A DNA stretch of 64,000 nt from Nitratireductor indicus C115. GTDB taxonomy: Bacteria > Pseudomonadota > Alphaproteobacteria > Rhizobiales > Rhizobiaceae. This document shows positions 12,696 through 47,961 of the stretch, in pieces. The notes beneath the pieces were generated by a model that did no database searches, was not told where the DNA came from, and worked only from the letters and a program-made list of their open reading frames with translations. A program made the translations under genes and the position numbers. Positions within the stretch are counted from its first letter, which is position 1; each line of letters starts with the position of its first letter. The DNA lies in the NCBI RefSeq assembly GCF_000300515.1, contig NZ_AMSI01000013.1:1-64000 (forward strand). Reading direction: 5' to 3'.

Positions 12696-12862
12696 GCCTG
12701 CCATTTTGTCGTCCTTGTTCAGCAGCGCGCTGGCCCGGGAAGCGGGGCTTGTAAACAGTCGGATTCTGGCGCACATATAGGCCAGTCACCCGGCCCGGGC
12801 CCCTCTGGCAGGCAAGGCGTTGCCTGTGATGTCGGACCGCACGACAACGCGCAGACGCAGCG

Positions 12863-43649: not shown

Positions 43650-45053
43650 TCACTCTGCGGCGATTTCCGCCGCAGCGCCTTCCAGCCATGCCTTGCAATC
43701 GGCAAGCGCTCTGGCGCTCATGGCGCGCTTCTTGGCGAGTGTCTTTTCCTTGCCACGCAGGCGCTTGCCCTCAGGTTTGGGCACCTCGATCGGCGGAAAC
43801 AGGCCGAAATTGACGTTCATCGGCTGGAAAGAGCGTTTTCCGGGTTCGTCCTCGGACAGGATGTGCCCGCCGGTGATATGGTTGAGAAGCGCGCCGAAAG
43901 CGGTGGTCGCCGGCGGCGGGGTGAGCGGACGTCCCAGCCGTGCGGCTGCCGCAAAGCGGCCGGCGATGAGGCCCATGGCCGCACTTTCCACATAGCCCTC
44001 GCAGCCCGTGATCTGCCCGGCAAAGCGCAGACCGGTGCGGGTTTTGAGCTGCAGCGTGCCGTCGAGCAGAGCGGGGGAATTGAGATAGGTGTTGCGGTGC
44101 AGGCCACCGAGCCGGGCGAACTCGGCAGTCTCAAGGCCCGGAATCATCCGGAAGATATGCGTCTGTTCGCCATATTTCAGCTTCGTCTGGAAACCGACCA
44201 TATTGTAGAGCGTGCCAAGCGCATTGTCCTGCCGCAGCTGAACCACGGCATAGGGCTTTTCATCCGGCTTGTGAGCATTGGTAAGCCCCATCGGCTTCAT
44301 CGGCCCGTGCCGCAGCGTCTCGGGGCCGCGTTCGGCCATTACCTCGATGGGCAGGCAGCCATCGAAATAGGGCGTGCCTTCCCATTCCTTGAACTCGGTC
44401 TTGCCGCCATCGAGCAGGGCCTGGATGAAAGCCTCGTACTGCGCCTTGTCCATCGGGCAATTGATATAGTCCTTGCCCGTTCCGCCCGGTCCCACCTTGT
44501 CGTAGCGCGACTGGAACCAGGCAATGTCCAGATTGATCGTGTCGAAATGAACGATGGGGGCGATTGCATCGAAGAAGGCAAGTGATTCCGAGCCAGTCGC
44601 AGCCGAGATCGCCTCCGCCAGAGCCGGCGCGGTGAGCGGTCCGGTTGCGATGATCGCCTCATCCCATTCCTCAGGAGGCAGGCCGGTGATTTCCTCACGC
44701 GCAATGGTGATGAGCGGATGAGCCTCGAGAGCCTTGGTCACCGCCTCGGAAAACCCCTCGCGATCGACGGCGAGCGCACCGCCTGCGGGAACCTGGTTGG
44801 CATCCCCCGAACTCATGATCAGCGAGCCGGCGAGCCGCATTTCCGCATGGAGAACGCCGACCGCGTTGGTCTCGGCATCGTCGGAGCGGAACGAGTTGGA
44901 GCAGACGAGTTCGGCAAGCCCGTCCGTCTTATGTGCGTCGGTTCCGCGCACAGGCCGCATTTCATGCAGGACGACCGGCACGCCCGCCTGGGCTGCCTGC
45001 CATGCTGCTTCCGAGCCGGCGAGACCGCCGCCAATGATGTGTATCGGTTTCAT
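43650..45053 (-). CDS. trmFO: tRNA (uracil-54-C5)-methyltransferase, folate/FAD-dependent (TrmFO)
   Basis: 467 residues. The FAD-binding motif is [20 protein letters not shown], and [20 protein letters not shown] is the TrmFO signature with its cysteine. The ATG at 45053 was chosen at MKPIHIIGG; the frame is open upstream to 45179, into the sRNA array. TrmFO makes 5-methyluridine at position 54 of tRNA with methylene-tetrahydrofolate. It lies directly downstream of the sRNA array on the same strand. Confidence 0.96.
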
Positions 45054-45165: not shown

Positions 45166-45300
45166 CAAAAAAACAACACCCGCCGAGGGAGGAGGTTCGG
45201 CGGGTGTCGTTTTGGGATGACCGGCTTTTGGGAGGAGGAGGAGCCGGTCGTATCCGTCAGAACTGGGAGGAGGAGTGTTCTGACGAAACTCTAATTCTTC
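45166..45300 (-). ncRNA. CcsR / alpha-r14-like sRNA, unit 1 (array end, strong terminator)
   Basis: Three hairpins in 5'-3' minus order: 45285-45255 (CGTCAGAAC/GTTCTGACG), 45249-45219 (GACCGGCT/AGCCGGTC) and 45207-45176 (ACACCCGCCGA/TCGGCGGGTGT). Each loop exposes CCTCCTCCC, complementary to Shine-Dalgarno sequences (plus-strand positions 45187-45195, 45230-45238, 45265-45273). The third hairpin is followed by GTTGTTTTTTT and acts as terminator. The ends given are approximate. Such RNAs act by blocking ribosome binding sites. Confidence 0.82.
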
Positions 45301-45623
45301 TGCGGTCGCTCCCTATATGGGGAGCCTCCGCTGGGAAACAACACCCGCCGAGGGAGGAGGTTCGGCGGGTGTCGTTTTGGGATGACCGGCTTTTGGGAGG
45401 AGGAGGAGCCGGTCGTATCCGTCAGGGGTTCGGCGGGTGTCGTTTTGGGATGACCGGCTTTTGGGAGGAGGAGGAGCCGGTCGTATCCGTCAGAACTGGG
45501 AGGAGGAGTGTTCTGACGAAACTCTAATTCTTCTGCGGTCGCTCCCTATATGGGGAGCCTCCGCTGGGAAACAACACCCGCCGAGGGAGGAGGTTCGGCG
45601 GGTGTCGTTTTGGGATGACCGGC
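45194..45623. repeat. 197-bp exact direct repeat within the sRNA array (offset 233 bp)
   Basis: 45194-45390 and 45427-45623 read the same base for base, ending at a T/C difference at 45391 versus 45624. This marks a recent duplication or gene-conversion event spanning unit 1 and the start of unit 2. The underlying period of the array is about 161-165 bp between successive second hairpins, except 68 bp inside the fused unit. Confidence 0.9.
45334..45533 (-). ncRNA. CcsR / alpha-r14-like sRNA, unit 2 (recombinant fusion of two copies)
   Basis: Hairpins 1 and 2 of one copy (45518-45488, 45482-45452) are joined at about 45426 to hairpins 2 and 3 of another (45414-45384, 45372-45341). The 3' half of the first copy's third hairpin, with its loop, and the 5' part of the second copy's first hairpin are missing, leaving two orphan half-arms (45430-45440 and 45415-45425). 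Four intact CCTCCTCCC loops remain. The orphan arms could pair with the other copy's arms, giving alternative folds. Confidence 0.75.
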
Positions 45624-45700
45624 CTTTGGGAGGAGGAGGGGCCGGTCAATTCCGAAGGAACAGGGAGGAGGTTGTTCCGCCGGAAACTCGAAAACTGTCC
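45568..45700 (-). ncRNA. CcsR / alpha-r14-like sRNA, unit 3 (diverged copy)
   Basis: Three hairpins: 45678-45657 (GGAACA/TGTTCC, sequence changed from the other units), 45647-45617 (GACCGGCC/GGCCGGTC, a compensated pair change) and 45605-45574 (ACACCCGCCGA/TCGGCGGGTGT). All three loops still show CCTCCTCCC, so the loops are conserved while the first stem has drifted. The pattern of changes supports RNA function. Confidence 0.8.
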
Positions 45701-45727
45701 GGATGTCCGCCTAAGCGACTTTTCCGG

Positions 45728-45855
45728 GGAAACAACACCCGCCGAGGGAGGAGGTTCGGCGGGTGTCGTTTTAGGGTGACCGGCTTTTGGGAGGAGGAGG
45801 AGCCGGTCGTATCCGTCAGGATTGGGAGGAGGATAACCCTGACGGAATTCCTTGA
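45728..45855 (-). ncRNA. CcsR / alpha-r14-like sRNA, unit 4 (next to DUF1127 gene)
   Basis: Three hairpins: 45845-45813 (CCGTCAGG/CCTGACGG), 45808-45778 (GACCGGCT/AGCCGGTC) and 45766-45735 (ACACCCGCCGA/TCGGCGGGTGT), each with CCTCCTCCC in the loop. Its first hairpin begins only 15 nt after the DUF1127 stop codon, so this unit is probably cut from the DUF1127 mRNA 3' UTR. The third hairpin is followed by GTTGTTT. Confidence 0.8.
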
Positions 45856-45859
45856 ACTG

Positions 45860-46000
45860 TTAGAGCGACTTGCGCGCCACGAACGGAATATCGCCACGCG
45901 AGATGCCGAGATCGTTCAGCTCCCGGTTGGAAAGGCGGCTCAGCTCGGTAACCGTCTGACGGTAGCGGCGCCAGTTGCGATAATTGCGGATGATGTTCAT
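45860..46000 (-). CDS. DUF1127 small basic protein (CcaF1-like)
   Basis: 46 residues: MNIIRNYRNWRRYRQTVTEL, then SRLSNRELNDLGISRGDI, the DUF1127 core (L..L....L.DIGI.R.DI) in an Arg-rich context. The ATG at 46000 was chosen because the upstream part of the open frame (to 46144) is not protein-like. In Rhodobacter the DUF1127 protein CcaF1 is encoded upstream of CcsR1-4 and binds RNA; the position here, immediately before the sRNA array, is the same. A similar RNA-binding role is inferred. Confidence 0.88.
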   Translation of the reverse strand: MNIIRNYRNWRRYRQTVTELSRLSNRELNDLGISRGDIPFVARKSL

Positions 46001-46275
46001 TTCTCTAGTCTCACTTCGATGCGAAATCTGAATTCGTCTTGCGATGAGGAGATAGTCCCATCGAGCCATGCTTTGAAGTGCCAATGTTGCATGACTGCAA
46101 TGCGTTTTGTGCAATGCAACATGGCTTCTTTGCGGCTGCAGCATGACGGCTCTTTGACAGGCGGTTGCGACCTCTCGTGAAGCGTTGCCCGGTGGGACTT
46201 GCCGCGCTGCAGCGGGGCGAAGCCGCAGGCTTTCCGGAAAGGCGCAAAAAAGCCCTGAAAATTGCCAATTTCTCT

Positions 46276-46348: not shown

Positions 46349-46433
46349 GCGGGTGTGGTGGAATTGGTAGACACGCAGGATTTAGGTTCCTGTGGCGCAA
46401 GCCGTGGGGGTTCAAGTCCCTCCACCCGCACCA
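46349..46433 (+). tRNA. tRNA-Leu (TAG)
   Basis: 85 nt with encoded CCA. Acceptor GCGGGTG pairs with CACCCGC; the anticodon loop TTTAGGT gives TAG; a variable arm (TGGCGCAAGCCGT) marks a class II tRNA. The T-loop is GGTTCAAGTCC. Confidence 0.96.
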
Positions 46434-46524: not shown

Positions 46525-47961
46525 ATGCAGGTAACCGAGACTCTTAATTCAGGGCTCAAGCGCGAACTGAAGGTCATCGTCCCGGCCAAGGATATGGAGG
46601 CCCGTCTTTCGGAGCGCCTCGATACCGCCAAGGACAAGGTGAACCTCAAGGGCTTCCGGCCGGGCAAGGTGCCGGTCCAGCATCTGCGCCGGGTCTATGG
46701 CAAGTCGCTCATGGCGGAAGTCGTGAACGAGATTCTGTCGGACACGCAGAAGCTTCTTACCGATCGCGGTGAAAAGCCGGCTATGCAGCCGGAGATCGCC
46801 ATGACCGAGGACGAGAAGGAAGCCGAGAAGGTTCTCTCCGGCGGCGCCGACTTCGAGTTCACCATGTCCTACGAGGTCATTCCGCCGATCGAGCTGAAGC
46901 CTTTCTCCGATATCAAGATCACCCGTCAGATTCATGACGTGCCGGATGAAGATGTTGAAGAACAGGTCAAGCGCGTTGCCGATTCCGCCCGCACCTACGA
47001 GGTGAAGAAGGGCAAGGCGGCTGACGGCGACAAGGTCAAGATCGACTATCTGGGCAAGATCGACGGTGAAGCCTTTGCAGGTGGCGCCGCCGAGGATTCC
47101 GAGGTGGTGATCGGCCTGAACCAGTTCATAGCCGGTTTCGAAGAGCAGCTTGTCGGCCTGAAGGCTGGCGACGAGACCACGATCAAGGTTACCTTCCCGG
47201 ATGAATATGCCGCTGAGCATCTCGCCGGCAAGGAAGCCGAGTTCGACATCAAGGTGAAGGAAGTCTCCAAGCCGAACGAGCTGGAGATCAACGACGAGAC
47301 CGCCAAGATGCTCGGCCTGGAATCGGCTGAGAAGCTCCGCGAGATCGTTCGTGGTCAGCTTGAGAACCAGTTCGGTCAGGTGACGCGCCAGAAGGCGAAG
47401 CGCCAGATTCTCGACGCTCTTGACGAGGCCTACAAGTTCGAGGCTCCCGAGCGTCTGGTCGAGGCCGAGTTCAACAACATCTGGGAGCAGGTCACCCGCG
47501 ATCTCGAGCGCGCCGGCCACACCTTCGAGGATGAGGACACGACCGAGGAAGAGGCGCGCGAGGAATATCAGCGTCTTGCCGAGCGTCGCGTGCGCCTTGG
47601 CCTCCTTCTCTCCGAGATCGGCGAAAAAGCCGGTGTCCAGGTGAGCGACGAGGAAATGCAGCGCGGCCTGATCGAGTCCATTCGCCGCTATCCCGCCCAT
47701 CAGCAGCAGGAGATCTACGAGTTCTATCGTCAGAACCCGCAGGCGCTGGCCAATGTCCGTGCTCCTCTCTTCGAGGAGAAGGTCATCGACCATCTGCTGG
47801 GCGAGATTTCCGTCACCGACAAGAAAGTGTCGCGCGACGAACTGATGGCCGACGACGAGGATGACGCTGGCGAAAAGCCGGCCAAGGCCGAGAAGGCCGC
47901 TCCGAAAAAGAAGGCAGCGCCCAAGAAGGCCGCCGCCAAGAAGAAGGAAGAGGGCGAGTAG
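46525..47961 (+). CDS. tig: Trigger factor (ribosome-bound chaperone / PPIase)
   Basis: 478 residues. The N-terminal ribosome-binding domain includes [19 protein letters not shown] (family signature GFRxGKxP). The FKBP-type PPIase domain is near residues 160-245 ([20 protein letters not shown]). The C-terminal chaperone arms follow, then a Lys/Ala-rich tail. It has its own terminator and follows tRNA-Leu, an order I recall in Rhizobiales. Confidence 0.97.

What the first reader, a model, noticed from the sequence alone, without database searches (positions are those of the whole stretch)
45166..46000. DUF1127 gene followed by a tandem anti-Shine-Dalgarno sRNA array
A 46-residue DUF1127 protein is encoded directly upstream, on the same strand, of four hairpin-RNA units. 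Every intact loop shows CCTCCTCCC, the complement of a Shine-Dalgarno sequence. From established knowledge, Rhodobacter CcaF1-CcsR1-4 has this order and rhizobial alpha-r14 sRNAs (NfeR1) have such three-hairpin RNAs. Seeing both together here suggests the two are one conserved regulatory locus in which an RNA-binding protein and repeated translation-blocking RNAs share a transcript.
Basis: partly seen in the sequence, partly recalled or inferred. Interest (0 to 1): 0.82.

Follow-up and report, generated by a model that had tools for sequence, protein, structure and literature searches.

The report
Small-protein gene with ribosome-site-blocking RNA array
This is a known kind of bacterial regulatory locus, a tiny arginine-rich protein gene followed by repeated hairpin RNAs that can cover the start signals of other genes; the new part is that its switch looks conserved across two large bacterial orders and that a phage lineage carries a copy of the RNA.

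Summary
On the minus strand a 46-residue DUF1127 gene (46000-45860) is followed by four RF02344 (ar14) matches, 76-99 bits against a cut-off of 58.8. Three units are intact; one is a composite from a recent tandem duplication. All ten congeners searched have the gene plus three units. Stems covary, and only the last unit has a U-run terminator.

RNA binding by this short protein is unproven.

My additions, inferred from sequence. (1) Nine of eleven genomes carry the published LsrB/VtlR box (TGCA-N6-GCAT) exactly, two with one change; in the window it lies at -70 to -57 of the predicted start, nearly where LsrB binds at NfeR1. It stands upstream of 19 of 19 Rhodobacterales loci, in 12 twice 39-40 nt apart, against 2% of random windows. 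All 17 such genomes searched hold an LsrB-like regulator with a nearly identical DNA-binding head. (2) Forty IMG/VR contigs carry an ar14-like gene beside a phage replication helicase.

The parts
46085..46121 (-). Predicted LsrB/VtlR operator: TGCA-N6-GCAT at 46113-46100 inside the inverted repeat TGTTGCAT (46121-46114) / ATGCAACA (46092-46085)
   Evidence: Coordinates; exact form in 9 of 11 genomes of the genus, final T changed to A in 2; published forms from passages of PMC10746234, PMC7486931, PMC12595884. Binding not tested.
46050..46078 (-). Predicted sigma-70 promoter CTTCAA (46078-46073), 17 nt, CTATCT (46055-46050); start predicted near 46043
   Evidence: -35 word and 17-nt spacing in 11 of 11, -10 CTATCT in 9 of 11. 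Inference, no transcript data.
45860..46000 (-). DUF1127 protein, 46 aa
   Evidence: PF06568 66.4 bits; in 11 congeneric copies 27 of 46 codons vary only synonymously, 3 with an amino-acid change; pN/pS 0.027
45730..45851 (-). ar14 unit 1, three hairpins with CCUCCUCCC loops
   Evidence: RF02344 98.6 bits; 3 T after the third hairpin
45569..45689 (-). ar14 unit 2
   Evidence: RF02344 89.6 bits; 3 T after the third hairpin
45548..45553 (-). CCATAT, the -10-like element before the following unit (CTATAT in 8 of 10 congeners)
   Evidence: position read. Inference.
45336..45524 (-). Composite ar14 unit made at the tandem duplication
   Evidence: RF02344 76.0 bits with an insertion; TRF periods 233 and 68; fold z -8.6
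45315..45320 (-). Second copy of CCATAT, before the last unit
   Evidence: position read. Inference.
45171..45292 (-). Last ar14 unit
   Evidence: RF02344 98.1 bits
45167..45185 (-). Right arm of the last third hairpin with a run of 7 T: the array's only terminator-like end
   Evidence: last unit 5-10 T, inner units 0-4 T, in 11 of 11 genomes

Best explanation
A CIN1-type operon of the cuckoo (ar14/CcsR) RNA superfamily. The LysR-type regulator LsrB/VtlR binds the TGCA-N6-GCAT operator and recruits sigma-70 polymerase; one transcript runs through the DUF1127 gene and all RNA units and ends at the only U-run terminator, after the last unit. It is cut, probably by RNase E as in Rhodobacter, into a DUF1127 mRNA and several three-hairpin RNAs; the last unit may also start from its own -10-like site. 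The loops pair with Shine-Dalgarno sequences of many mRNAs and block translation. The small arginine-rich protein is made at the same time and either helps mature or turn over the RNAs (as CcaF1) or acts on a protein such as PhoR (as in Agrobacterium). Shown here: protein family, RNA family, covariation, gene order and its conservation, box and regulator gene present, terminator placement. Inferred: regulator binding, co-transcription, processing, targets, role of the protein.
For: RF02344 on all four units; 17 of 33 pairs with changes on both sides and kept pairing, 97.7% of cells paired, 0 of 500 shuffles as high; DUF1127 under purifying selection; DUF1127 plus three units in 10 of 10 congeners; U-run only at the last unit in 11 of 11; box at -70 to -57 of the predicted start in the window, the script finding the same place in 10 of 11, against -72 to -57 for LsrB at NfeR1 (PMC10746234, passages); VtlR activates small DUF1127-type genes in other Rhizobiales (PMC12595884, PMC7486931, passages); lsrB present beside trxB in the window's own genome.
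Against: No transcript data. Two of 11 genomes deviate from the box by one base. The own orphan ar14 and the four other own DUF1127 copies lack the TGCA-N6-GCA[TA] form upstream; one of the four, L007, matches the looser GCAT-N3-TG-N3-T form. A -10-like word before the last unit argues against a single transcript. Forty-six of 120 motif loci with enough flank show no DUF1127 nearby, so the RNA does not need the neighbour.
Confidence: 0.75

Rival explanations
1. The units are separate NfeR1-like genes, each with its own promoter, and the DUF1127 gene is only a neighbour.
For: NfeR1 has its own sigma-70 promoter (PMC10746234, PMC7143759, passages); CTATAT before the last unit in 8 of 10 congeners, variants in the other 2 and in the window.
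Against: No CTATAT before unit 2 in any of the 11; no U-run after inner units; DUF1127 found on the same strand in 56 of 120 motif loci and on the opposite strand in 0.
Confidence: 0.2
2. Protein and RNAs are co-expressed but act in separate pathways: the short DUF1127 protein binds a sensor kinase such as PhoR and has nothing to do with the RNAs.
For: Short DUF1127 proteins of Agrobacterium work through PhoR, and CcaF1 complements that defect (PMC12501420, passages).
Against: CcaF1 binds RNA and matures the CcsR RNAs (PMC10253847, passages); the gene order persists across two orders.
Confidence: 0.45
3. The TGCA-N6-GCAT element is the site of another regulator, not of the LsrB orthologue, at least in Rhodobacterales, where the published promoter of ccaF1-CcsR is RpoHI/RpoHII-dependent.
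For: PMC10253847 (figure legend passage) names only RpoHI/RpoHII; PMC11975290 calls LsrB unique to Rhizobiales (passage); no trxB within 1.5 kb of the Rhodobacterales regulator in 17 of 17, unlike 4 of 4 Rhizobiales; the tree of the regulators is poorly resolved, 15 of 30 inner branches open.
Against: Best LsrB match in 17 of 17 genomes at 39-43% identity, E 1e-68 to 1e-77, while the second-best LysR protein is at 2e-39 or weaker; nearly identical winged-helix head; reciprocal best hit for the one tested.
Confidence: 0.3

Closest known systems
CIN1 locus (DUF1127 gene with cuckoo/CcsR-like RNAs; Reinkensmeier and Giegerich 2015, seen only as cited in PMC10253847)
   Same: Order, strand, short DUF1127 gene, tandem CCUCCUCCC hairpin RNAs
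   Different: Nothing basic; here a composite unit from a recent duplication, and a predicted LsrB operator
Rhodobacter sphaeroides ccaF1-CcsR1-4
   Same: DUF1127 gene, then four tandem RNAs and one terminator at the end
   Different: CcaF1 has 71 aa, this protein 46; CcsR1 model below its cut-off here (34.2 against 65.3 bits); its published promoter is RpoHI/RpoHII
ar14 family RF02344 / NfeR1 of Sinorhizobium meliloti
   Same: Three hairpins, CCUCCUCCC in each loop, predicted LsrB box at nearly the same place
   Different: NfeR1 is a single gene with its own promoter; here an array behind a protein gene. The own orphan ar14 (G000:C14:34221-34334) lies 3' of a phasin gene
VtlR/LsrB-activated small DUF1127-type genes (atu1667; BAB1_0914, BAB2_0512)
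   Same: Small protein gene with the VtlR box
   Different: I did not fetch those loci and cannot say whether ar14 RNAs follow them

Membership tests
ar14 (RF02344) | Covariance score over the curated cut-off | tested here: met
   98.6, 98.1, 89.6, 76.0 bits against 58.8
ar14 (RF02344) | Three hairpins with CCUCCUCCC unpaired, variable stems | tested here: met
   Alignment of 33 units: loops nearly invariant, stems covary
ar14 (RF02344) | Expressed as a small RNA that silences mRNAs | not testable with these tools
   No RNA data
CcsR1 (RF02791) | Covariance score over the curated cut-off | tested here: not met
   Best 34.2 bits against 65.3. In eight Rhodobacterales loci both models match the same arrays
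CIN1 locus | Short DUF1127 gene directly upstream of the RNAs, same strand | tested here: met
CIN1 locus | Co-transcription | not testable with these tools
   Only indirect: terminator only at the end
DUF1127 (PF06568) | Pfam score over the cut-off | tested here: met
   66.4 against 23.3 bits
CcaF1-type RNA-binding protein | RNA binding and role in RNA maturation | not testable with these tools
   Needs pull-down; the literature on short DUF1127 proteins is divided
LsrB/VtlR regulon | Operator TGCA-N6-GCAT upstream of the promoter | tested here: met
   46113-46100
LsrB/VtlR regulon | Regulator gene present in the genome | tested here: met
   296-aa LysR protein beside trxB and ar15 on C3
LsrB/VtlR regulon | Binding and dependence on the regulator | not testable with these tools
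   Needs EMSA and an lsrB deletion

The most novel reading that the evidence does not exclude
The DUF1127-cuckoo RNA operon is an ancestral output of one LysR-type regulator, LsrB/VtlR, kept from Rhizobiales to Rhodobacterales with its operator, so the textbook Rhodobacter ccaF1-CcsR locus would have an unrecognised LsrB-type activator beside RpoH. A phage lineage has taken one of these RNA genes, in half of its contigs with an exact copy of the operator, and so may answer to the same host switch.
Probability: 0.5. Interest if true: 0.68.

Novelty: new member of a known kind. Interest (0 to 1): 0.5.

Why it matters
The locus itself adds a case to a published class. If the operator prediction holds, it joins two lines of work that cite each other little in what I could read: LsrB/VtlR in Rhizobiales (redox, symbiosis) and CcsR/CcaF1 in Rhodobacter (stress, photosynthesis). 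It would make the control of anti-Shine-Dalgarno RNAs a class-wide question that one deletion strain can test, and it would contradict the statement that LsrB is unique to Rhizobiales. The phage copies would give a case of a virus carrying a host-type translation-blocking RNA.

Tried and rejected
Rejected: chance. Rejected: the plus-strand open frames across the array (for example 45437-46180) as genes; they read through the repeats. Considered and left open: that the DUF1127 gene avoids a strong Shine-Dalgarno so as not to be blocked by its own RNAs: 2 of 51 such genes have a match of 5 nt or more to GGGAGGAGG against 73 of 632 other frames; Fisher p 0.11, so not shown. Rejected: that the six nearest named relatives of the phage carry the RNA beside the helicase; none has a cluster of the motif in the stretches fetched, and the RNA region has no nucleotide match in 50,697 phage records or, for one subfamily, in 72,556 plasmid records. 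A first attempt to find lsrB through RF00519 led to an unrelated place; RF02345 led to it. A tree of the regulators was poorly resolved: the two groups of best matches lie together away from two other own LysR proteins, but the second-best group joins them on a very long branch; I lean on score gaps and one reciprocal hit instead.

Results against my reading: the box is not upstream of the own orphan ar14, and the four other own DUF1127 copies lack its exact form (one matches the looser form); 11 of 27 Rhizobiales operons lack the exact form, 4 of 27 lack both published forms (background for either form 281 of 6000). In the spacing control on 19 Rhodobacterales regions, N6 gave 19, N5 gave 11 and the others 0-2; of ten control words nine gave 0 and CATG-N6-ATGC gave 8. 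Other frames of 200 aa or more have the box upstream in 32 of 804.

Orders were assigned by me from record titles; L113 (title only 'Alphaproteobacteria') was counted as Rhodobacterales, L064 (title only 'Pseudomonadota') with 'Rhizobiales/other'. Of 120 groups 117 were scored for the box; L076, L130 and L164 were dropped for short flanks.

Full report
What is there. On the minus strand of the window, between trmFO-like GidA (43650-45053, PF01134) and, on the other side, a tRNA gene (46349-46430, plus strand) and trigger factor (46525-47961), lies a 46-aa DUF1127 gene (46000-45860; PF06568 66.4 bits) and, starting 8 nt beyond its stop, an array of RNA units matching RF02344 (ar14): 98.6, 89.6, 76.0 and 98.1 bits against a cut-off of 58.8. 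Thirteen of the window's fourteen CCTCCTCCC words are in this array; shuffles give 0.61 on average. The CcsR1 model RF02791 stays below its cut-off (34.2 against 65.3), but in eight Rhodobacterales loci both models match the same arrays, as expected if they are one superfamily.

The third unit in order is a composite. Tandem Repeats Finder reports a 233-bp period with 1.9 copies at 99% and a 68-bp period with 2.0 copies at 100%. The junction joins the left half of a third hairpin to the right half of a first hairpin. The ten congeners fetched (L040-L049) have exactly three units each, so the window's fourth is a recent duplication, or less likely an assembly error.

The RNAs are real structures. 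On 33 units from 11 genomes, 97.7% of cells form standard pairs, 17 of 33 pairs show changes on both sides, and none of 500 shuffles reaches any of the five measures; structures slid by 1 to 3 columns pair at 29-46%. The motif columns are nearly invariant. The protein is real too: 27 of 46 codons vary only synonymously, 3 with an amino-acid change, pN/pS 0.027 in 11 sequences.

Anatomy of expression (inferred). Upstream of the gene in all 11 genomes stands CTTCAA, 17 nt, and a -10 word (CTATCT in 9, CTATTT and TTATCT in the other two). Further up is TGCA-N6-GCAT in 9 of 11, with the last T changed to A in two. In the window it lies at 46113-46100, that is -70 to -57 of a start predicted six bases beyond the -10 word. 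Published work places LsrB binding at -72 to -57 of NfeR1, with the motif TGCA-N6-GCAT (PMC10746234, passages), gives the VtlR box GCAT-N3-TG-N3-T (PMC7486931, passages) and the Brucella motif CAATGCAGCCATGCA (PMC12595884, passage), to which the window's CATTGCAGTCATGCA is close. After the third hairpin the last unit has 5 to 10 T, inner units 0 to 4, in 11 of 11; a CTATAT stands in the spacer before the last unit in 8 of 10 congeners, with variants in two and in the window. I read this as one LsrB-driven transcript with a possible second start for the last unit.

Is the pairing of gene and RNA more than local? A DUF1127 domain lies on the same strand within 600 nt upstream in 47, within 1200 nt downstream in 9, on the opposite strand in 0, absent in 46, undecidable in 18. 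Of 37 arrays with five or more motifs 26 have it upstream; of the 6 such arrays without it, 3 are in non-alphaproteobacteria by title. There are 74 DUF1127 domains within 1.5 kb of an array and 3 in 613 kb farther away. This agrees with what PMC10253847 reports from Reinkensmeier and Giegerich 2015 as the CIN1 locus (passage). I could not read that paper, nor Gruetzner 2021 or Billenkamp 2015.

The operator beyond the genus. In 160-nt regions upstream of the operons TGCA-N6-GCAT occurs in 19 of 19 Rhodobacterales, 16 of 27 Rhizobiales/other, 22 of 64 Rhizobiales/other loci without the gene upstream, and 126 of 6000 random windows of the same loci. Mononucleotide shuffles of the 19 give 0.1 on average. 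In 12 of the 19 two boxes stand 39 or 40 nt apart when the last base is left free. The window's own genome has LsrB beside trxB and an ar15 RNA. In 17 genomes counted as Rhodobacterales the best match to it is a full-length protein at 39-43% identity and E 1e-68 to 1e-77; the second-best LysR protein has E 2e-39 or weaker; Streptomyces has none at 1e-20. The head is almost the same letter for letter (LSQSAVSRQIRALE, LFHRHARGLILTEQGE), though trxB is not within 1.5 kb in any of the 17. One of them finds LsrB back as best hit, E 3.9e-76 against 5.6e-41 for the next. PMC11975290 states that LsrB is unique to Rhizobiales, with R. sphaeroides among the species looked at (passages); PMC7486931 calls it conserved in the class (passages). 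My search for papers holding CcsR, LysR and Rhodobacter together found none, which covers only the held library.

What the protein does is the weak step. CcaF1 binds RNA and matures CcsR RNAs (PMC10253847, passages); short DUF1127 proteins of Agrobacterium act through PhoR, and CcaF1 can replace them (PMC12501420, passages). I give RNA binding by the 46-aa protein about even odds.

A phage copy. The same motif search in IMG/VR gave 55 contigs. Forty carry a relative of the same phage DNA helicase (phrog_16 for L207, beside Gam-like, methyltransferase and Cas4-exonuclease genes). All 14 of those 40 that I scanned match RF02344 at 72-81 bits. None of the 40 has DUF1127 in the fetched stretch. 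TGCA-N6-GCAT stands upstream in 20 of 40. Six named phages with a related helicase lack the motif cluster in the stretches fetched. The nearest host units for the four phage units compared are in Ochrobactrum teleogrylli and Brucella cytisi at 52-55% identity, which hints at the host but does not show it. Two paper searches with prophage as a term listed no paper on an ar14 RNA in a phage.

Verdict. The predicted class-wide LsrB operator and the phage copies are, to my knowledge, new, and are sequence inferences.

Noticed in passing
L180-L234, e.g. L207:5113-5233 (+), L209:4477-4596 (+): Forty IMG/VR contigs of one phage lineage carry an ar14-like anti-Shine-Dalgarno RNA gene converging on a replication helicase; 20 of 40 also have TGCA-N6-GCAT upstream. 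In the roughly 60-kb contigs whose ranges I checked by hand it lies 13-20 kb from one end.
   Followed up: partly
L261-L277: An LsrB/VtlR-like regulator with a nearly identical DNA-binding head in 17 genomes counted as Rhodobacterales, against a published statement that LsrB is unique to Rhizobiales.
   Followed up: partly
window 45194-45647: A 233-bp tandem duplication at 99% identity inside the array, absent from ten congeners, making a composite RNA unit: array size is in flux.
   Followed up: partly
L005 (G000:C14:34221-34334): The genome's orphan ar14 unit lies directly 3' of a phasin gene (PF09361) on the same strand, without the exact LsrB box in the 250 nt upstream.
   Followed up: partly
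L238, L235: Genomes of one genus of the family carry two ar14 units in opposite orientations close together.
   Followed up: no
window 12787-12844 (+): RF03067 terC RNA element, 62.3 bits.
   Followed up: no
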